Shown: positions 19 through 26,900 of the stretch, in pieces
Numbering within the stretch: position 1 is the stretch's first letter
Layout: each line of letters begins with the position of its first letter
DNA from: Sphingobacteriales bacterium
GTDB taxonomy: Bacteria > Bacteroidota > Bacteroidia > Chitinophagales > JADJOU01
Direction of reading: 5' to 3'
Assembly: GCA_021297855.1 (NCBI GenBank)
Contig: JAJTHM010000013.1
Location: forward strand, 1-33,387
Length of the DNA stretch: 33,387 bases
Notes under the pieces: generated by a model
Told to the model about the DNA's origin: nothing
What the model saw: the letters and a program-made list of their open reading frames with translations, nothing else
Databases searched by the model: none
Made by a program: the position numbers and the translations under genes

Positions 19-1533
19 TCAAGCCACTACAAAAATAGGTCTAAAATGACTATAGGCAATAAAATACTTAACCCTCCACTTTAAGTTCATGTATATTCTG
101 ACGATATTGGCTTCTACCTTTATGCTGAATAAAAGGGGTATTGACCCTGCTAATTTTGCAAGGTTCAATACCATAAAAATGGAGGCTATCCATGATTCGG
201 AAGTACTTTTGAGTTTAGCTTGAATACAATTTAAACCGTATCGTATCTTGCCTTGTCCAAACTTACCTTCTATCGGATTCCTCTCGCCGGGTCTTACGTA
301 GTCTTCTACTGCCTCTTTTTTAGGTCTGCCCAAGGGCTTGGCTATGAGTTTTATTCCTTTTTCTTTCATTTTATTGCGATTCTCTCTGCTACAGTATATT
401 TGGTCTGCCAGTACTTCTTCTGGATAGTATTCATGCCTCTCCTTATACTTTTCTACTGAGTCTTCAAGATACTTTCCTTCGTTATACGCATCCCATGATA
501 ACTGATCTATGAAATTATAGCCATCGACTAAACTCACATTAACTTTGCTCCCAAATTCGGTATAGGCTCTCTCTTTACCTCGTACTATTGGGCGTACATG
601 TGGTTGATGAATATTGACTATTCTATCGGCTACATAATGTATTTTTTCTTTGTACATACCATTTTGCTGCTCATATACATACTGAATGATATAGAAATAG
701 CGTAGGTGTTTGAATTTTAGGGGTATTGCTCCATAGGTGTCTAGCAAACGATTTATATGAAGAATATTGCGCCTGAGGTAGCGTAACTGCTTACCTATAG
801 CCTTCTGAATCGTTTTTTTTGATGGTTTTTTCTTTTTCACATAGTTGAGATAGTCTTTATTTGCCATTTCTCTATAGGTGCGAACCTTGACTCCATGTAC
901 TTCATGATTGTGTAATTTATCAATGATTTGCTCTGCTTTTCTTCTGGCAGCATTGATAAGTTTTATATCCGTAGGAAATGTAATATTCTGAGGGCATACC
1001 GTAGCATCTATCAACAGTTTTCCCTTGTGAGTTGGAGGCTCTGCCGTGTCATCCTCCTCCTTACTATCTTCTTTCTTCTTCTCTAGCTCTTGATATTTAG
1101 CATATATCAGTTCATTGACATCACTCATAAATTCTAATCCGAGTCGCTCTCTTATCTCTACAAATAAAGAAGGGTCAAATGGTTCTTCTTTTTGAAAACC
1201 TTTGTATCCCAAGAAATACTGATAATACATATTCTCTTGAATCTGACTGATAGTTTCTCTATCTGTCAGCTTTTGCATATGTTTTATCATTACCGCTCCT
1301 ATAATCACACGACCATTGATAGGGGGTCTGCCAGTTTGATAGTTGAGAATTTTATAGTACTTGGATACTATCTCGTCCCATGGAATCACATTGGCTAATC
1401 GAACCCAGCGATTAGACATATCAATCTCTATATCCAATGGATTTTCAAAACCTGGTATGGTCAATTGGTTTTGACTCTCATATTTAGGATGAACTGCACG
1501 CTTTTTTGACTTCTTATCCGAATTTCCTTGCAT
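19..1533 (-). CDS. IS5/IS1182-like DDE transposase
   Basis: A 504-residue transposase filling the IS. The N-terminal third resembles the DUF772 region (NRWVRLANVIPWDEI, then GRPPINGRVIIGAVMIKH and the QENMYYQYFLGY stretch), which contributes to DNA binding and assembly. The DDE catalytic residues are visible: D in LLIDATVCPQ (about 174), D in EEVLADQIY (about 377) and E in RNPIEGKFGQG (about 423). A lysine-rich insert lies between about residues 150 and 170. The frame is intact and the length suits a full transposase, so the element may still be active. The start is the ATG at 1533, about 20 bp downstream of the start site predicted from a consensus promoter box. It is most likely an IS5/IS1182-superfamily enzyme; the exact IS name is unknown. 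Confidence 0.88.
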   Translation of the reverse strand: MQGNSDKKSKKRAVHPKYESQNQLTIPGFENPLDIEIDMSNRWVRLANVIPWDEIVSKYYKILNYQTGRPPINGRVIIGAVMIKHMQKLTDRETISQIQENMYYQYFLGYKGFQKEEPFDPSLFVEIRERLGLEFMSDVNELIYAKYQELEKKKEDSKEEDDTAEPPTHKGKLLIDATVCPQNITFPTDIKLINAARRKAEQIIDKLHNHEVHGVKVRTYREMANKDYLNYVKKKKPSKKTIQKAIGKQLRYLRRNILHINRLLDTYGAIPLKFKHLRYFYIIQYVYEQQNGMYKEKIHYVADRIVNIHQPHVRPIVRGKERAYTEFGSKVNVSLVDGYNFIDQLSWDAYNEGKYLEDSVEKYKERHEYYPEEVLADQIYCSRENRNKMKEKGIKLIAKPLGRPKKEAVEDYVRPGERNPIEGKFGQGKIRYGLNCIQAKLKSTSESWIASIFMVLNLAKLAGSIPLLFSIKVEANIVRIYMNLKWRVKYFIAYSHFRPIFVVA

Positions 1534-1663: not shown

Positions 1664-3991
1664 GTGCTGGATATAAATTCTGAAAATCCTTTAGAGCGAG
1701 AGTTGTTGAAGATAGATATGTTCAAAAATTATTTTGAACATGAGTTTGATTCTCGCATTGGAAATTTAAGAGAAAACTGGCGAATAAAAATTGGAGTAGA
1801 TATGGATGCCTTGGTTTATCCTACTTTATTTAGATTATTGAGTAGCTATTTAGATCAAGGTATTGCATTATGGAAATTTCCAATTAGAGACCTAAATTTT
1901 TTAGAAGCCCTGCGCCATATTGAATCCAATGGCTGGGTTAGTATATTTAGAAGAAAGCGAGCTAGGAAAATTTTTCAAGAACAAAACCATACGATTGAAT
2001 CTTTGTTAGAAATTTTAGTTGGGGAGAATAAAGATTTGTATGAACAATATATTTTTGATCAGCAGTTTGAACATCAAGGCTGGAGTGGATTTGTGTCAGA
2101 GCTAGAAAGAGTGCCGACTATGCTTTTGGACCAAAGAAAGATAAAAACTTCTGAATTTATCTTTTTAGAGTTACTGATGGAAATTGATGCCTTGGATTAT
2201 AAACTAGGAGAGGGGAAATGGAAACCATTAGAATTTTATTTAGATTATCAGCCCAAGCCACTTTTTGCAGAAGTAAGGGAAACAAGAGTATTTACCCTTG
2301 CGAAGATTTGGCAAGAAGCTTATGAGTGGTCATATTATATGCCAGTGCTAAAAGGTATTATTGACAATAGAAATTGTGTAGAATTTAGTCAAAAGGATTT
2401 TCAAACTATCATGTGTATAGATGATCGTATTTGCTCCTGGCGAAGACATGTAGAAGATTTAGCTCCTAATTGTGAAACCTTTGGAACGCCAGGTTTTTTT
2501 GGACTGGACATGTATTTTCAGCCAGAGGGTGGAAAATTTTATACCAAAGTCTGTCCCATGCCTATGACACCCATCTATCTAGTCAAGGAGGTACCTAAAG
2601 GTCATATCTTTAGTACAATGAGAAAGTTGATTAAAGCTAGAAAGGCAAATAAAACACATCATCATGACACAGACATTCATTTTTCTGAGCATGCACATAA
2701 TAGTTTATTTGGCTGGTTAATATCTCAATTTATTGGCTTTTTCTCTGCCTTAAACTTGGTTTCAGCGGTTTTATTCCCAAAACGGAGCGCAGCGACTTCA
2801 AGCCCATTCAATCATATGGAAAAAAACTTCCCATTGACGATTGAGAATCATGGAGAAGAAATGGAAAACGGTTTGCATCTCGGATTTACGAAAGTTGAAA
2901 TGGCGGAGCGAGTTTCCAATATGCTGCATAGTATTGGTTTAATGGACAACTTTGCTCCTATAGTTTACGTGATAGGTCATGGATCTACTAGTACAAACAA
3001 TCCCTACTACGCAGGATATGATTGTGGTGCATGCAGCGGAAGAGCTGGATCTGTCAATGCCCGTGCTTTCTGTCTAATGGCTAATGATTATAAAGTGAGA
3101 GAACTACTTATCGAAAAGGGAATAATCATACCAGAGACTACTTTTTTTATGGGTGGCCTGCATGATACTACTCAAGATGTCGTTCAGTTTTTTGACAAAG
3201 ATATTGTCATGGAGGAGACGAAAAGAGCGAAGCATCTCGAATATAAAAAACTGATGCGAGAAGCCCTTCTTCGCAATGCTGTGGAGCGTTCTCGGAATTT
3301 TGAAAACGTCAATAAGAAGCAAACACCAATACAAATCCATAAGGAAATAAAGAAGAGGGCAGTTTCATTTTTCGAACCGAGGCCAGAATACAATCATGCT
3401 ACAAATGCCCTTTGTATTATTGGTCGAAGACAAATGACTAAAGGACTGTTTCTAGATCGCAGAGCCTTTCTCAATAGCTATGATTATAGAATAGACAAAG
3501 ATGGCAAGTACCTTCAAGGGATAGTAAATGCTGCGGCCCCTGTTTGTGGAGGTATTAATTTGGAATATTATTTTTCGAGAACGGATAATCAAAAATTGGG
3601 TTCAGGTTCTAAGTTGCCGCACAATGTCATGGGACTCATCGGGGTCGCAAATGGCATAGAAGGAGACCTGAGACCAGGCTTGCCATCGCAAATGGTAGAG
3701 ATACATGAGCCTGTTAGACTCATGATGATTGTCGAACAATTTCCCGACATCATAATCGATGCTATCCAGGCGAATGCAGCGACCTATGAATGGTTTATCA
3801 ATGAATGGATACACTTAATTTGTTATCACCCTATAAATCACATGATGATGAAATTTCAAAATGGAGAATTTAAAGAGATACAAATTTCAAAAGAGATGAC
3901 ACCTAAAATGTCGAGTTCTCAATTATTGGAGGCATTTATGAACCAATCCGAACAATTGCCAGTCACTTTAATTCAGCAACCTATAACATGA
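1664..3991 (+). CDS. dabA: DabA, inorganic carbon pump subunit, 5' end removed by the IS
   Basis: DUF2309/UPF0753 family, the carbonic-anhydrase-like subunit of the DabAB energy-coupled CO2/bicarbonate uptake system. The zinc and active-site residues known from Halothiobacillus DabA are all present: Cys251 and Asp253 in CIDDR, His439 in VIGHGS and Cys454 in YDCGAC, with the family spacing of 15 between His and the last Cys. The GTG at 1664 is only the first possible start. The frame is open and homologous back to the IS edge at 1601 (SISEYQQEYKKGRITHEI), so the normal N-terminus, perhaps 75-100 residues, lies beyond the IS. The 3' end overlaps dabB by ATGA, indicating translational coupling. 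The gene is probably inactive, or makes a shortened protein if transcribed from the IS. Confidence 0.85.
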   Translation: MLDINSENPLERELLKIDMFKNYFEHEFDSRIGNLRENWRIKIGVDMDALVYPTLFRLLSSYLDQGIALWKFPIRDLNFLEALRHIESNGWVSIFRRKRARKIFQEQNHTIESLLEILVGENKDLYEQYIFDQQFEHQGWSGFVSELERVPTMLLDQRKIKTSEFIFLELLMEIDALDYKLGEGKWKPLEFYLDYQPKPLFAEVRETRVFTLAKIWQEAYEWSYYMPVLKGIIDNRNCVEFSQKDFQTIMCIDDRICSWRRHVEDLAPNCETFGTPGFFGLDMYFQPEGGKFYTKVCPMPMTPIYLVKEVPKGHIFSTMRKLIKARKANKTHHHDTDIHFSEHAHNSLFGWLISQFIGFFSALNLVSAVLFPKRSAATSSPFNHMEKNFPLTIENHGEEMENGLHLGFTKVEMAERVSNMLHSIGLMDNFAPIVYVIGHGSTSTNNPYYAGYDCGACSGRAGSVNARAFCLMANDYKVRELLIEKGIIIPETTFFMGGLHDTTQDVVQFFDKDIVMEETKRAKHLEYKKLMREALLRNAVERSRNFENVNKKQTPIQIHKEIKKRAVSFFEPRPEYNHATNALCIIGRRQMTKGLFLDRRAFLNSYDYRIDKDGKYLQGIVNAAAPVCGGINLEYYFSRTDNQKLGSGSKLPHNVMGLIGVANGIEGDLRPGLPSQMVEIHEPVRLMMIVEQFPDIIIDAIQANAATYEWFINEWIHLICYHPINHMMMKFQNGEFKEIQISKEMTPKMSSSQLLEAFMNQSEQLPVTLIQQPIT

Positions 3992-5850
3992 TTCATTTAA
4001 TTATTTTACTACTATTGGCCACTCCATTTTTAGGTTTTACGGCTGGCTTGTTTATAGAGGAAACCAATGAAAAAGCCCTATCTAGATTAGCTATAGGATC
4101 GGTTATTATGCAGTTTATCCTATCATCCATTTTGACTATATCTTGGTCAATAGGAGGATTTCAACAAATAAATTTATCTGAACTCAATGTTTTTCAAAAT
4201 CCAAGTTATCATTTCTTTATTGATTTCTTAATTGACAAAATTTCGATTAGTTTTATTCAAATCGGTTCGTTTCTCGCCTTAATGGTTACTATTTTTAGTC
4301 AGTATTATTTGCACAGAGAAGAAGGCTATAAAAGATTTTTCCTCATTATTTTGCTTTTTTATTTTGGGTATAATGTAACCATACTTTCTGGAAATTTTGA
4401 AACGCTATTTTTAGGCTGGGAAATTTTAGGTATTTCTTCATTTCTTTTGATTGCATTTTATCGTCATCGATACCTGCCAGTGAAAAATGCTGTCAAAGTC
4501 TTTACCATCTATCGCCTAGGAGATGTGGGTCTGCTACTCGCGATGTGGCTCAGTCATCATTTCTGGCATGAAAATGTTACCTTTCTAAAAATGTCCAATG
4601 CAAATTTATTTAACGAACATATTCACGAACATAGTATTTTAGGTATTTTCATAGCTCTTGGTGTCGTATTAGCTGCATCAGCTAAGTCAGCGCAGTTCCC
4701 ATTTTCATTTTGGTTGCCTAGAGCTATGGAAGGACCTACTCCGTCAAGCGCAATTTTTTATGGTTCTCTATCTGTTCATATGGGTGTTTTTTTATTGCTT
4801 AGGATATTCCCATTAATAGAATTTCAACTATCCGTTCGAATTTTATTAATTATATTAGGTTTGTTTACATTTTATGTATCGACAGGTATATCTAGAGTGC
4901 AGAGTTCTATAAAAGCCCAAGTCGCTTATTCCTCGATTTCTCATATTGGTTTAATGTTTGTAGAAATAGCTTTAGGTTTGCACTTATTGGCTTTAATTCA
5001 CTTTATTGGAAATGCCATATTGCGTACTTATCAATTATTAATTAGTCCCTCCATCGTTAGTTATAAAATTAGAGAACAATTTTACACCTTTAAACCACAA
5101 ACTCAAACTATAGAAAACTATTTTCCTAAAAGCTGGCAATACGCTATGTATTTGCTTTGTTTAAAGGAATGGAATTTAGATTCTATACTCTATAAATATA
5201 CCTGGTCACCGATAAAGTGGCTGGGGAAAAAACTTTCTTTTTTGACATGGAAAAGAAGTAAATATCTAATTCCATTTTTTCTATTGTCATCTCTTATTTC
5301 CTATTGGGTGGAAAAGCATTTTCATTACCATTTACTTCCAGAATTATCAGGTGGAATAGCGCTATTATTTGCTTTGAAGTCTTTTTCAGAAAAGAAAAGT
5401 GCATTTAATGCTTTATTTCTCGTTTTATTTAATCACCTATTTATTGCCTTAGCAGTATTTTTTAATGAGCATCTAACATGGGGTGAAGTTTTAATTTACA
5501 TAAGTGGCGTCCTTTTATCTAGTATTTTGGGATTTTCAATACTCTTTTTTATGAAGAAGAAGGGTGAAAAACTGAATTTGAAAAGATTTCATGGTCATGC
5601 CTATGAATATCCCCACATCTCCATTATTTTCTTGATAGCCTGTCTTGGTCTGACAGGATTTCCGATCTCCCCAACCTTTATTGGGGAAGATATAATTTTC
5701 TCTCATATACGTGATAATCAATTTATTTTAGCTATGTTTGTAGCGAGCTCATTTGTCCTAGATGGTTTGGCCTTGATTCGTATTTATTCGATGTTATTTT
5801 TAGGTCCGAATAGTAAAACCTATCATGAAGTAGCTTATCGAAATTCTTAA
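3988..5850 (+). CDS. dabB: DabB, proton-conducting membrane subunit of the carbon pump
   Basis: A 620-residue, very hydrophobic protein of the NuoL/MrpA proton-channel family (Proton_antipo_M). The signature of this family is visible around residues 230-270: AKSAQFPFSFWLPRAMEGPT followed by PSSAIFYGSLSVHMGVFLLLR. An earlier FETLFLGWEILGISSFLLIAFYRHR segment and about 14 likely transmembrane helices agree. On its own it could be mistaken for NADH dehydrogenase subunit 5. It is assigned to DabB because it overlaps dabA by four bases and no other Complex I gene is near. In DAC systems DabB is thought to let cations flow inward to drive DabA. The reading frame is intact, but with dabA broken upstream its expression and use are uncertain. 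Confidence 0.85.
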   Translation: MIHLIILLLLATPFLGFTAGLFIEETNEKALSRLAIGSVIMQFILSSILTISWSIGGFQQINLSELNVFQNPSYHFFIDFLIDKISISFIQIGSFLALMVTIFSQYYLHREEGYKRFFLIILLFYFGYNVTILSGNFETLFLGWEILGISSFLLIAFYRHRYLPVKNAVKVFTIYRLGDVGLLLAMWLSHHFWHENVTFLKMSNANLFNEHIHEHSILGIFIALGVVLAASAKSAQFPFSFWLPRAMEGPTPSSAIFYGSLSVHMGVFLLLRIFPLIEFQLSVRILLIILGLFTFYVSTGISRVQSSIKAQVAYSSISHIGLMFVEIALGLHLLALIHFIGNAILRTYQLLISPSIVSYKIREQFYTFKPQTQTIENYFPKSWQYAMYLLCLKEWNLDSILYKYTWSPIKWLGKKLSFLTWKRSKYLIPFFLLSSLISYWVEKHFHYHLLPELSGGIALLFALKSFSEKKSAFNALFLVLFNHLFIALAVFFNEHLTWGEVLIYISGVLLSSILGFSILFFMKKKGEKLNLKRFHGHAYEYPHISIIFLIACLGLTGFPISPTFIGEDIIFSHIRDNQFILAMFVASSFVLDGLALIRIYSMLFLGPNSKTYHEVAYRNS

Positions 5851-19958: not shown

Positions 19959-20292
19959 GAGCATTCAGTTTCAAAAAATCATTTAATGAATACCATATTT
20001 TCTTCTAACCTTTATTTACACAATAAGTTATCTTTGTTCTAGGTCATCAATGATGAAAGGTAAAAGTATCATCTTCTAAACCCTATAGACTATTATTAGA
20101 TAATAAAAACGACAACCTAATCAAAACAGAAAGAATAGTGATTCAGCGTGATTAATAAAATTAATCCTTATTTATAACGTCTGAGTAAAATCGCAATCAT
20201 ACTTAAAAACAAATCTCATTAACCTAACAAAAATTGGGTTCTATTCATATTGAATCGACTTTCAATGTATTTTTTTCTAGATTTTATAAAAC

Positions 20293-20317
20293 AAAAAAAA
20301 GGCGACGATTGCTCGCC
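20293..20317 (-). terminator. Intrinsic terminator of tracrRNA
   Basis: GGCGA at 20301-20305 pairs with TCGCC at 20313-20317 across a 7-base loop. On the minus strand the stem is followed by eight T residues (the A-run at 20293-20300). Confidence 0.85.
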
Positions 20318-20371
20318 ACCTTAGATGTTTACACAACGGAATAATCCTTATTGTGAAAAGCTTTTAAAATT
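20293..20371 (-). ncRNA. tracrRNA of the type II-C system
   Basis: On the minus strand, 20374-20351 is a 24-nt perfect anti-repeat, complementary to the crRNA repeat. After it come a bulge region, AAGGATTATTCCGTTGTG (whose CCGTTGTG can pair back with CACAATAAGG), then ATCTAAGGTGG and a terminator hairpin. This AAGGnnnnnCCGTTGTG layout is typical of Bacteroidota II-C tracrRNAs. A TAnnTTTG box at 20378-20385 places the start at the anti-repeat, giving an RNA of about 80 nt. It is divergent from cas9, whose ATG is about 130 bp away. Guide binding to Cas9 requires it, and it appears fully intact. Confidence 0.85.
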
Positions 20372-20377
20372 GTAATA

Positions 20378-20499: not shown

Positions 20500-22155
20500 A
20501 TGGGTAAAACAATTTTAGGGCTAGATATAGGTGTATCTTCGGTGGGCTTATCTATCATTTTAGAAAATGAAGGTCAAAAGGAAATTAAAGATATGGCAGT
20601 GAGAATAGTGCCTGAGGATCCAAATTTTCATGGTAAGTTTTATTCTGGCAATACTGCTAGTAAAAACCTAGAAAGAACAACTGATAGGGGGATTAGAAGA
20701 AGCAATCAGCGCTTTAAAAAGCGAAGAGACCAGCTTAAAGAAGTGCTGAAAGTCCATAATATGCTAAATGATTCATTGATTAACTTAACTGCTATTGAGT
20801 TATATGGATTAAGAGCTAAGGCAGTTCAAGAGCGGTTATCTTTGGAAGAGCTAGGAAGGGTTTTTATACACCTTAATCAGCGGAGAGGTTTTTTAAGCAA
20901 CCGAAAATCTGCAAGCGAAGAAGAAAATACTACCGAATATAAGAAGAGATTAGCGCAGCTGCAAGAAGAACTAGGAAGTGAAACTATAGGTCAGCATCTG
21001 TATAATGAGCTAAAAAATGCTATAAGTCCAATAGAAATTGTATTAAGAGAAAGAACCTATTTGCGTGCCTCTTATATGGAAGAGTTTGATAGAATATGGG
21101 AATGTCAAAAAAAATTCTATCCTGCTGTATTTACAGGTGGAGTGCATGAAGATAATAATAAAAGTACACTATATAATACCATTAGAAATCGTATAATTTT
21201 CTATCAAAGACCGCTAAAAAGTCAAAAAGGTCTGGTATCGAATTGTACATTTGAAAGGTATCACAAGGCTATTAATAAATCATCTCCATATTTTGAATTG
21301 TATAGAATCTGGCAACGAATTAATGATTTAGCATGGAAACTGCCAAGTGGAGAATCTCAATTACCAACACAAGAGCAAAAAAATCGTCTTTTTGAAAAGT
21401 TATTTTATGAAGTAGAAGCAAAGAGCAATTTTAAACTGACCGTTTCAGCTATCAAAAAAACATTAGGCTTTTCATCAAGAGAAAATATATATCTGAATTT
21501 TACAGAATTAGATGGAAGTAAAACATATTCTACAATAAAAAATGCCTTAGAAAAAGCTGAAATTATTGATTTTAATCGCTTTTTGTTTTTCAATCATCAA
21601 GTACATGATGAAAAAGGTGGATTGCTTGAATTGTGGCACATACTATATTCTTTGCCAGCGGATGCAGATATTATTAATACATTAATAAAAAGATTCGGGT
21701 TTACTCAAGAACAGGCAAATATAGTTGCTAAAGAGGTAGGGTTTAACGCAGATTATAGCAGTTTATCTACTAAGGCGATAAAGAAGCTTCTACCTCACTT
21801 AGAGAATGGATTAGCCTACAATGAAGCTTGTGATATGGTTGGATATGACCATAGTGGTTATAAAACAAAAATTGAAGTTCATCAAAAGTTAGCACCTATA
21901 AAACAAAATAGTCTTAGAAATCCAGTAGTAGAGCAGGTGTTAAATCAAGTAGTTAACATGGTCAATCTTGCAATTGAAAAACATGGCAAGATTGATGAGA
22001 TAAGAGTAGAACTAGCTAGAGAGCTGAGAAATAATGCAAAAACTAGAAAGAAAATTACATATCAAAATTCTAAAAATAAAAAATCAAACGATGAAATTCG
22101 AGCAAGACTCCAAAATGAGTATAACTTCAAAATAGTGAATGGTAGAGATATATAG
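20500..22155 (+). CDS. Cas9 N-terminal part (RuvC-I, bridge helix, REC, RuvC-II)
   Basis: If translated as it stands, this 551-residue product would contain RuvC-I, the bridge helix, the REC lobe (roughly 90-480) and RuvC-II up to KIVNGRDI. It would lack HNH, RuvC-III and the PAM-interacting C-terminal domain. It could not cleave DNA and probably could not recognise a PAM. No TAnnTTTG box is evident upstream of the ATG; the transcript may start within the 130 bp shared with the divergent tracrRNA. Confidence 0.7.
   Translation: MGKTILGLDIGVSSVGLSIILENEGQKEIKDMAVRIVPEDPNFHGKFYSGNTASKNLERTTDRGIRRSNQRFKKRRDQLKEVLKVHNMLNDSLINLTAIELYGLRAKAVQERLSLEELGRVFIHLNQRRGFLSNRKSASEEENTTEYKKRLAQLQEELGSETIGQHLYNELKNAISPIEIVLRERTYLRASYMEEFDRIWECQKKFYPAVFTGGVHEDNNKSTLYNTIRNRIIFYQRPLKSQKGLVSNCTFERYHKAINKSSPYFELYRIWQRINDLAWKLPSGESQLPTQEQKNRLFEKLFYEVEAKSNFKLTVSAIKKTLGFSSRENIYLNFTELDGSKTYSTIKNALEKAEIIDFNRFLFFNHQVHDEKGGLLELWHILYSLPADADIINTLIKRFGFTQEQANIVAKEVGFNADYSSLSTKAIKKLLPHLENGLAYNEACDMVGYDHSGYKTKIEVHQKLAPIKQNSLRNPVVEQVLNQVVNMVNLAIEKHGKIDEIRVELARELRNNAKTRKKITYQNSKNKKSNDEIRARLQNEYNFKIVNGRDI
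22153..22155 (+). other. In-frame amber codon in cas9
   Basis: TAG between ATA (Ile551) and AGA. The frame continues open for 645 further codons with clear Cas9 homology. The sense codon at this point was most probably Leu. Confidence 0.9.
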
Positions 22156-22287
22156 AGATATAAACTCTGGGAAGAGACCAATCAAGTATGTCTTTACTGT
22201 AATAAAACAATCACAAAAACGGATTTACTGAATGGACAGGCAGATATTGAGCATATTCTGCCAAAATCGAGGTCGTTTAGTAATAAC

Positions 22288-24093
22288 ATGAATAACTACA
22301 TCTTAGCGCATAGAATGTGTAATAAAGATAAAAATCAAATGACAGCCTTTGATTTTATGCTATCTAAAAATGATTCAATTGCAAAAGACTATATAGAGCG
22401 AGTAAATGCCCTCTATAACGATGGTAAAGGATTAATATCCAAATCTAAGTTTGAAATGCTCATGTGCAGGGGAGAGGAAATCCCATCAGACTTTGTTGAG
22501 CGCATGAAAAAAGATACTCAGTATATAACTAAAGAAGCAGTAAAAATGCTAAAATCTGTCTGCGAAAATACATATACTACCAGTGGACAGATAACGGACT
22601 TTTTGAGAGAAAAATGGGGACTCAAGGAAACATTACAGGAAATAAATATAGACAAGTATAGAGCAATAGGTCTGGTGGATTCCAAGGAAATTAAAGACAA
22701 AGAAGGGCATCTAAAATCCATAGAAGTAATACATGAATGGAGTAAACGAGACGATCACAGACACCATGCTATTGATGCCCTTATCTGCGCCTTGACCGAT
22801 CAAAAAATTATATTCAAGTTGAACAATCTGAATAAACTATATCAATATGAGCGCAATCTGCTTAGTGTAGAGGAGCGCACTGCTATAGAGAACGCATTAA
22901 GCGATGAATTAAACCCTAATAGGAAATTTGATATAAAAAGTTTTGCAGAACTATCAGATACCTTAATTAATGAACCTATGCCAGATCTTAGGAAACAGGC
23001 AAGAGATCATCTAGATAAAATTTTCATCTCTATCAAAAAAAGCTCAAAAGTAATGAGCAAAAATGTAAATACTCCAAAAGGCGGTGAACCACAGACGACT
23101 TGGGTACCGCGAGGAAGACTGCATGAGGCTACTGTTATGGGACGTGTAAAAAGAATAGCGGATAAAAAAGTCAAGTTAAATGATAAATTTAACCAACTTG
23201 AAAATATAGTCAACCCAGATCTAAAGGCCTATTTAAAGCAGTATATATCTAAATTTAACAATGATATGAAGACCGCATTTGATAGTAAATTGCTAAAAAA
23301 GAAACCACTACTATACAAAGGTAAAGAGCTGAAAGAGCTGGCAGTCTATGAATACGCCTGCACTAAGCGAGTGGAAATATCTGATAAAGTAACATCAGCA
23401 CAATTAGATAAGATAGTGGACAAGAAAATTCAGAAAGTCATACAATCTAGACTAGATGATTCTCATGGAAAAATAAAGGAGGCGTTTTCAAATCTAAAGG
23501 ACAATCCAATATGGCTAAATAAAGAAAAAGGCATTCAAATAAAATCATTCACAGTCTATGATGAAAGCAAAGTCGAGCAGGTGAGAACTGGATATGCTAA
23601 AACGGGGAACAATCATCATGCGCTCATATATAGAACCGAAGATGGTAAATTTAAGGATAAAGTTATATCTTTCTGGGAAGCAGTGGAAATAGGTAAGTTT
23701 AATATAGCACAGACTGGGTTTCCTTATCCGATTATAAATAGAGCAGATGACCATCTTTTAGGTCAGTTTCATTTTTCAATGCAAATCAATGACTTATTCG
23801 TGTTTGATTTAAAGCACGCTGAAAATCCTAAAGAAGAAAATGAAATCAATTTTCTAGACCCTAATAATAGATCTCTTATCAGTTCTAAGTTGTTTAGACT
23901 TCAAAAATTGAGCAAAGGGAGTAGTGGTCAATTTATTGTTGATTTTAGACATCATTTGGAAACTACTGTTCTACGAAGCGACCCCAACCTAGTGGGACTT
24001 GCATGGAATAGAATCTCATCAAACGATCATATAAATAGACTGACTAAGATTAGAATCAATCAGCTAGGGGATATTTTAAAAATAGGGGAATAG
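22288..24093 (+). CDS. Cas9 C-terminal part (end of HNH, RuvC-III, PAM-interacting domain)
   Basis: The first ATG after the amber codon is at 22288, giving 601 residues. Starting here omits HNH Asp582 and His585 (in DIEHILP, just upstream) but keeps Asn608, RuvC-III (HHAIDALICALTD) and the whole C-terminal domain. Restart would therefore still lose HNH activity. This part has no further stops or frameshifts, which means the amber codon is recent or that readthrough keeps the downstream part under selection. Confidence 0.65.
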   Translation: MNNYILAHRMCNKDKNQMTAFDFMLSKNDSIAKDYIERVNALYNDGKGLISKSKFEMLMCRGEEIPSDFVERMKKDTQYITKEAVKMLKSVCENTYTTSGQITDFLREKWGLKETLQEINIDKYRAIGLVDSKEIKDKEGHLKSIEVIHEWSKRDDHRHHAIDALICALTDQKIIFKLNNLNKLYQYERNLLSVEERTAIENALSDELNPNRKFDIKSFAELSDTLINEPMPDLRKQARDHLDKIFISIKKSSKVMSKNVNTPKGGEPQTTWVPRGRLHEATVMGRVKRIADKKVKLNDKFNQLENIVNPDLKAYLKQYISKFNNDMKTAFDSKLLKKKPLLYKGKELKELAVYEYACTKRVEISDKVTSAQLDKIVDKKIQKVIQSRLDDSHGKIKEAFSNLKDNPIWLNKEKGIQIKSFTVYDESKVEQVRTGYAKTGNNHHALIYRTEDGKFKDKVISFWEAVEIGKFNIAQTGFPYPIINRADDHLLGQFHFSMQINDLFVFDLKHAENPKEENEINFLDPNNRSLISSKLFRLQKLSKGSSGQFIVDFRHHLETTVLRSDPNLVGLAWNRISSNDHINRLTKIRINQLGDILKIGE

Positions 24094-24099
24094 CTATCT

Positions 24100-25337
<1,238 letters not shown>

Positions 25338-25387: not shown

Positions 25388-26479
25388 GTTGTCAAAGATA
25401 CAATTTTAAAAGCTTTTCACAACATAAAGACGGTAGAATGGAAGTAAGCCCACGTTGTCAAAGATACAATTTTAAAAGCTTTTCACAACTCAAGCGTTAC
25501 ATAAATAACACTCGTTGAGGTTGTCAAAGATACAATTTTAAAAGCTTTTCACAACATAACAGCTATCGTATTTCGATTAATGTATGTTGTCAAAGATACA
25601 ATTTTAAAAGCTTTTCACAACAGGCAGTCAGCAGCCTTTTTAGAAAACTGAGTTGTCAAAGATACAATTTTAAAAGCTTTTCACAACAGATTTTTGAGAA
25701 ATTGCTTTTCGGTCAAGTTGTCAAAGATACAATTTTAAAAGCTTTTCACAACGGGTCATCTTCTGTCTTTCTCAGCGCAGTGAGTTGTCAAAGATACAAT
25801 TTTAAAAGCTTTTCACAACTATCAGCTAGAATGGCCTCTTTATTGATAGTTGTCAAAGATACAATTTTAAAAGCTTTTCACAACTTATCGACAATCAACT
25901 CTCTATTGACTATAGTTGTCAAAGATACAATTTTAAAAGCTTTTCACAACAGCAGTTTTCATATACAGTAGGCGGTGTAGGGTTGTCAAAGATACAATTT
26001 TAAAAGCTTTTCACAACTCATCTGAATAATTCATAACCAAGGAAGTTGTTGTCAAAGATACAATTTTAAAAGCTTTTCACAACTATATTTTATAGTTAAT
26101 TGCCTCTATTGCAGTTGTCAAAGATACAATTTTAAAAGCTTTTCACAACAAATAAGCTAGTATGTGCCGATATGAAACCGTTGTCAAAGATACAATTTTA
26201 AAAGCTTTTCACAACGAATCTGAAATGCAAGATATAATTAATGAGGTTGTCAAAGATACAATTTTAAAAGCTTTTCACAACAAAACTATATGTCTCTGGA
26301 ATTAATCCGTTGTTGTCAAAGATACAATTTTAAAAGCTTTTCACAACTTACTTTGATATGTTCATTCAAAAGGAGAAGTTGTCAAAGATACAATTTTAAA
26401 AGCTTTTCACAACTAACATATATCTCTACAAAAATCTGATATAGTTGTCAAAGATACAATTTTAAAAGCTTTTCACAAC

Positions 26480-26509
26480 CCACATCGTATCTCTTGTAAA
26501 CTTCTTTAA
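26480..26509 (-). other. Spacer nearly identical to another spacer
   Basis: This spacer matches the one at 26612-26641 at 26 of 30 positions, and all four differences are transitions. On the crRNA strand it starts TTAAAGAAGTTTACAAGAGA. The differences lie 3, 4, 10 and 16 bases from the repeat-proximal, PAM-side end. Confidence 0.85.
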
Positions 26510-26611
26510 GTTGTCAAAGATACAATTTTAAAAGCTTTTCACAACCATTTTATGTTCTCCTTATATGCTATTGTGGTTGTCAAAGATACAATTTTAAAAG
26601 CTTTTCACAAC

Positions 26612-26641
26612 CCGTATCGTGTCTCTCGTAAACTTCTTTAA
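26612..26641 (-). other. Partner of the near-identical spacer pair
   Basis: On the crRNA strand it starts TTAAAGAAGTTTACGAGAGA. In the frame LKKFTRDT three of the four differences from the other spacer fall at third codon positions, and two of those are silent, as expected for homologous coding sequence of two related invaders. Confidence 0.85.
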
Positions 26642-26843
26642 GTTGTCAAAGATACAATTTTAAAAGCTTTTCACAACATTCCCATTACTTTATAATATAA
26701 AATTCGTGTTGTCAAAGATACAATTTTAAAAGCTTTTCACAACCAGGACTAGATGATGATGTTTTCGCAGATGTTGTCAAAGATACAATTTTAAAAGCTT
26801 TTCACAACTGAGTATTAAACCCAGCTCTAAAAGTCATAGTTGT

Positions 26844-26851
26844 CAAAGATA
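26844..26851 (-). promoter_or_regulatory. Promoter box inside the first transcribed repeat (present in all 23)
   Basis: On the minus strand each repeat contains TTG at positions 2-4, 19 bases, then TATCTTTG at 24-31: a full Bacteroidota TTG-N17-23-TAnnTTTG promoter. The start would fall about two bases into the following spacer. The coordinates mark the copy in the repeat at 26839-26874; the same box recurs in each repeat. Confidence 0.6.
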
Positions 26852-26900
26852 CAATTTTAAAAGCTTTTCACAACAATGGGAACATTAATTCACACCACCC

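What the first reader, a model, noticed from the sequence alone, without database searches (positions are those of the whole stretch)
22153..22155. One amber codon splits an otherwise complete Cas9 just before HNH
The frame is the same on both sides, all RuvC and HNH residues are encoded, and there is no other lesion in 1197 codons. Leu is expected at this position, so a single T-to-A change explains it. cas1, cas2, tracrRNA, array and identical repeats look functional. Possibilities: very recent inactivation, a sequencing error, suppression at TAG, or a system kept for adaptation or regulation with cleavage off.
Basis: partly seen in the sequence, partly recalled or inferred. Interest (0 to 1): 0.7.

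Follow-up and report, generated by a model that had tools for sequence, protein, structure and literature searches.

The report
Recently broken Cas9 gene (single stop)
A bacterium's otherwise complete CRISPR immune system carries one stop signal in the middle of its Cas9 cutting-enzyme gene, most likely an ordinary and recent loss-of-function mutation, or less likely a sequencing error, rather than a new kind of system.

Summary
A type II-C cas9 (20500-24093, +) has one in-frame TAG at 22153-22155 (codon 552), with 566 and 645 open codons on either side and no other lesion. cas1, cas2, a minus-strand tracrRNA with terminator, and 23 identical repeats are present. Leu is not the expected residue: 36 aligned relatives have I/Q/E/V/K/T/D there, and the three closest (61-67% identical) have Gln or Lys, so T-to-A from a Leu codon has no support. 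Amber suppression is unlikely: no tRNA-CUA was found, RF1 is present, 41 of 152 long sampled ORFs end in TAG, and no other TAG-split gene occurs in 433 kb of this genome. Both halves are as conserved as intact relatives' cas9, so the lesion is young. Reinitiation cannot rescue cleavage: the first downstream start (codon 597) lies beyond the HNH catalytic motif (582-585). No spacer matches the genome elsewhere; there is no second Cas9 or Cas1. Best reading: a recent nonsense allele that turns interference off, and probably PAM-guided adaptation too, or, less likely, a consensus error or minor-strain base. Broken and truncated cas9 genes are known in this group. Ordinary; low interest.

The parts
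20500..22155 (+). cas9, 5' part (551 codons: RuvC-I, bridge helix, REC, RuvC-II), ended by the in-frame TAG
22153..22155 (+). in-frame amber codon, cas9 codon 552, at the start of the HNH domain
22156..24093 (+). cas9, 3' part (645 open codons: HNH, RuvC-III, C-terminal/PAM-interacting region); first ATG/GTG/TTG in frame is 22288 (codon 597)
24100..24993 (+). cas1 (type II form), intact
24966..25337 (+). cas2, intact (mechanical TTG start at 24966; true start may be further in)
25388..26874 (-). CRISPR array, 23 identical 36-nt repeats and 22 spacers; crRNA sense inferred to be the minus strand
20285..20374 (-). tracrRNA: 24-nt anti-repeat (20351-20374), then hairpins and a T-rich terminator

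Best explanation
This is a complete type II-C CRISPR-Cas locus whose cas9 has recently picked up a single nonsense substitution at codon 552, just before HNH. Translation ends at residue 551 and gives an N-terminal fragment without HNH, RuvC-III and the PAM-interacting region, so RNA-guided cleavage is off. PAM-guided spacer choice is probably off too, although cas1, cas2, tracrRNA and the array remain. Shown: the stop, the open frames on both sides, the intact partners, and the absence of relaxed conservation. Inferred: that the base is real in the organism, that the fragment is inactive, and that the cause is ordinary loss, since no self-targeting spacer was found to explain selection against Cas9.
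For: One TAG and no other lesion in 1197 codons. None of 36 aligned relatives has a stop there, and the column is variable with Q/K/K in the nearest three. At columns invariant in the other three close relatives, the window protein differs at 9.5% (N part) and 10.2% (C part), within the 6-12% range of the intact genes, so the 3' part is not decaying. Absence of a second nonsense or frameshift bounds neutral drift to about 0.02 substitutions per site from nonsense alone, or about 0.006 assuming 0.1 disruptive indels per substitution. RF1 present, TAG ends 41 of 152 long ORFs, no tRNA-CUA found. No usable start before codon 597, beyond DIEH at 582-585. No second HNH_4 protein or Cas1 in the genome. 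Broken cas9 genes exist elsewhere in the class (G116 frameshifted, G043 a 371-aa N-terminal remnant), and truncated II-C Cas9 is reported in Flavobacterium psychrophilum strains (PMC10309648).
Against: No reads or sister strains could be examined, so a consensus error or a minor-strain base is not excluded. The locus is otherwise pristine, which an error or a very recent change explains equally well. No selective reason was found: no spacer matches the genome elsewhere.
Confidence: 0.75

Rival explanations
1. The TAG is a consensus or assembly error, or the base of a minority strain in a mixed sample, and the organism's cas9 is intact.
For: A single base in an otherwise intact locus with no trace of decay; genome in 134 contigs with 1.46% contamination.
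Against: No other isolated stop of this kind in the 433 kb examined, so the assembly is not generally error-prone. A substitution error is rarer than an indel error in most assemblies (general knowledge).
Confidence: 0.16
2. The TAG is read through, by a suppressor tRNA or by a local RNA hairpin, giving low amounts of full-length Cas9.
For: The 120-nt stretch around the TAG (22100-22219) has the lowest folding z-score of 87 windows tiled along cas9 (-2.8 to -3.5), with a 15-bp stem reaching the TAG. The 3' part shows no decay.
Against: No tRNA-CUA by Rfam/ARAGORN or anticodon patterns; RF1 present; TAG a common true stop; no second TAG-split gene in the sample; the hairpin is absent in the three nearest relatives.
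Confidence: 0.04
3. The locus is kept for adaptation or for an RNA-based or regulatory role with cleavage off, or the two halves are made separately as a split Cas9.
For: cas1, cas2, tracrRNA and repeats intact. Cas1-Cas2 of II-C systems can be shared with other CRISPR types in F. columnare (PMC8092290).
Against: The fragment lacks the PAM-interacting region used in spacer choice (PMC10309648). The 3' part has no conventional start before codon 597, which drops the HNH catalytic motif. No other Cas1 and no second array with this repeat. A recent nonsense mutation explains the intact partners without any retained role.
Confidence: 0.05

Closest known systems
Type II-C CRISPR-Cas locus (tracrRNA, cas9, cas1, cas2, array) of Bacteroidota, e.g. 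Riemerella anatipestifer (PMC6008519) and Flavobacterium psychrophilum (PMC10309648)
   Same: Gene set and order, tracrRNA upstream of cas9, no csn2 or cas4, CRISPR array after cas2 with ~30-nt spacers
   Different: Here cas9 has one in-frame stop before HNH
Naturally truncated Fp1Cas9 in some F. psychrophilum strains (e.g. FPG3), PMC10309648
   Same: A natural isolate with a truncated II-C Cas9
   Different: The site and cause of that truncation were not examined here
cas9 of genomes G301, G308 and G256 (loci L053-L055), same class, other orders
   Same: 61-67% identical over the full length; same domain layout
   Different: Intact, with Gln or Lys at the homologous codon

Membership tests
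[quoted passage not shown]
   TIGR01865 492 bits read through the stop; Pfam HNH_4 and RuvC_III
[quoted passage not shown]
   TIGR03639 293.7 bits; TIGR01573
[quoted passage not shown]
   No ORF of 100 aa or more between cas2 (ends 25337) and the array (starts 25388), nor between cas9 and cas1; no cas4 or csn2 family hit among the Pfam-scanned window proteins
[quoted passage not shown]
   24/24 anti-repeat at 20351-20374, terminator hairpin, z -4.3
[quoted passage not shown]
   TAG at codon 552; hence filed as a broken member, not a working one
TAG-recoding organism or suppressor strain | tRNA-CUA | tested here: not met
   None among Rfam/ARAGORN tRNAs or anticodon-arm patterns. The Rfam search scored 150 of 218 candidates and also missed tRNA-Asp, so it is not exhaustive
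TAG-recoding organism or suppressor strain | RF1 lost or TAG avoided as a stop | tested here: not met
   prfA present at 488 bits; 41 of 152 long ORFs end in TAG

The most novel reading that the evidence does not exclude
A local hairpin at 22135-22208 lets ribosomes read through the TAG at low level, so that Cas9 is made in restrained amounts, a translational brake on CRISPR immunity.
Probability: 0.02. Interest if true: 0.75.

Novelty: new member of a known kind. Interest (0 to 1): 0.15.

Why it matters
Little on its own: one more example of a CRISPR system caught soon after losing its effector, with array and adaptation genes not yet decayed. It warns that a locus typed by repeats and cas1/cas2 may have no working interference, and that one base needs read support before biology is built on it.

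Tried and rejected
Self-targeting as the cause: 22 spacers against the own genome gave only their own array and chance-level partial matches. Spacer targets: none in phages; three exact-pattern scans of viral contigs empty. Suppressor tRNA: a first loose pattern was uninformative; the strict class I pattern found only tRNA-Arg(TCT) and a 3' fragment of it; the class II pattern found nothing. Second TAG-split gene: one candidate (L140:15543) is two unrelated genes, a redoxin and DUF4197. Other cas9 genes cut before HNH as a recurring type: the candidates in G285, G392, G006, G052 and G077 simply end at contig ends. dN/dS: synonymous sites saturated at these distances, so conserved-column counts were used instead. 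Literature: four searches gave no survey of nonsense alleles of cas9; one paper reports truncated Fp1Cas9. Heler 2015 and Wei 2015 were not held.

Full report
Observation. The window is a contig of a 3.1-Mb genome in 134 contigs. cas9 starts at ATG 20500 and ends at TAG 24091-24093; codon 552 (22153-22155) is TAG, and there is no other in-frame stop or frameshift. The genome search reports one TAG inside an otherwise open match to residues 1-1197. Both halves match the Cas9 family model on either side of the gap (TIGR01865 2-553 and 565-913), and all four RuvC/HNH catalytic motifs are encoded. Short HNH-domain constructs in the PDB align from query residues 510-548 onward, so codon 552 sits at the start of HNH.

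Surroundings. cas1 and cas2 are intact. The array has 23 identical repeats and 22 spacers. On the minus strand upstream of cas9 a 24-nt perfect anti-repeat is followed by hairpins and a T-run, a complete tracrRNA. This is the type II-C layout described for Riemerella (PMC6008519). The genome has only one HNH_4 protein and one Cas1, and no other copy of the repeat with up to 3 mismatches.

Which residue is missing. Across 36 aligned relatives the column holds I19 Q5 E4 V3 K2 T2 D1, with no Leu and no stop. The three closest relatives (67, 62 and 61% identical, other orders of the same class) have CAA (Gln), AAG (Lys) and AAA (Lys). The ancestral codon cannot be fixed from these data.

How old. 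dS is saturated against the nearest relatives. At columns invariant in the other three close relatives, the window differs at 9.5% (5' part) and 10.2% (3' part); the three intact genes differ at 6-12%. With no second nonsense or frameshift in 3.6 kb, unconstrained drift longer than about 0.02 substitutions per site (0.006 under an assumed indel rate) is unlikely. The lesion is recent, or not real.

Suppression and rescue. RF1 is present. 41 of 152 long ORFs sampled end in TAG. No tRNA-CUA was found by Rfam/ARAGORN or by class I and class II anticodon-arm patterns; these searches are not exhaustive, since tRNA-Asp was also missed. In 433 kb (14% of the genome; stretches fetched plus the window), every other single stop between two long open stretches has a start codon within 15 codons downstream, that is, two neighbouring genes; only the cas9 TAG does not. 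The first conventional start after the TAG is codon 597, past the DIEH motif at 582-585, so reinitiation would give a 3' product without HNH catalysis.

Hairpin. The 120-nt window at 22100 has the lowest folding z-score of 87 along cas9, with a 15-bp stem reaching the TAG, but the corresponding stretches of L053-L055 do not fold alike. This was found after looking, in one sequence, and is weak evidence.

Base rate. In the class search, 96 of 395 genomes had Cas9 matches. Among them G116 has a frameshifted cas9 and G335 a C-terminal remnant with a stop; in the search of relatives, G043 has a 371-aa N-terminal remnant inside a contig. Truncated Fp1Cas9 and complete loss are reported among F. psychrophilum strains (PMC10309648). 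Broken cas9 genes are thus ordinary.

Conclusion. Most likely a recent nonsense allele of a II-C cas9 (whose nearest relatives lie in other orders, suggesting horizontal spread) that switches off interference; second, a consensus error or minor-strain base. Retained-for-adaptation and readthrough readings are not excluded, but they add assumptions that nothing here requires.

Noticed in passing
26480-26509 and 26612-26641: Two spacers share most of their sequence (CCACATCGTATCTCTTGTAAACTTCTTTAA / CCGTATCGTGTCTCTCGTAAACTTCTTTAA), as if taken from the same site of two diverged invaders; no exact hit in viral contigs.
   Followed up: partly
22135-22208: Hairpin with a 15-bp stem reaching the TAG; lowest folding z-score along cas9, not seen in the three closest relatives.
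   Followed up: partly
22144-22163: Near-perfect 10-nt tandem repeat AGAGATATAT/AGAGATATAA spanning the stop codon; no indel relative to relatives, so it does not explain the lesion.
   Followed up: partly
24091-24102: The cas9 terminal TAG is in frame with the cas1 ATG at 24100 (TAG CTA TCT ATG), so TAG readthrough there would fuse Cas9 to Cas1.
   Followed up: no
L113 (G000:C81:5606-5633): A 3' fragment of tRNA-Arg(TCT), identical to part of the intact gene on C88, looks like the attachment site of an integrated element.
   Followed up: no
L148 (G116): Another genome of the class has a frameshifted cas9 split into open frames of about 244, 133 and 850 codons next to a short cas1 frame.
   Followed up: partly
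19-1533 (-) and 1664-5850 (+): A DDE transposase at the contig end, then DabA and a proton-antiporter-type membrane protein, likely a DabAB inorganic carbon uptake pair.
   Followed up: no
G000 contigs C5, C11, C13, C20: Several contigs begin with the same sequence about 66 bases from the end, probably a repeated mobile element that breaks the assembly.
   Followed up: no
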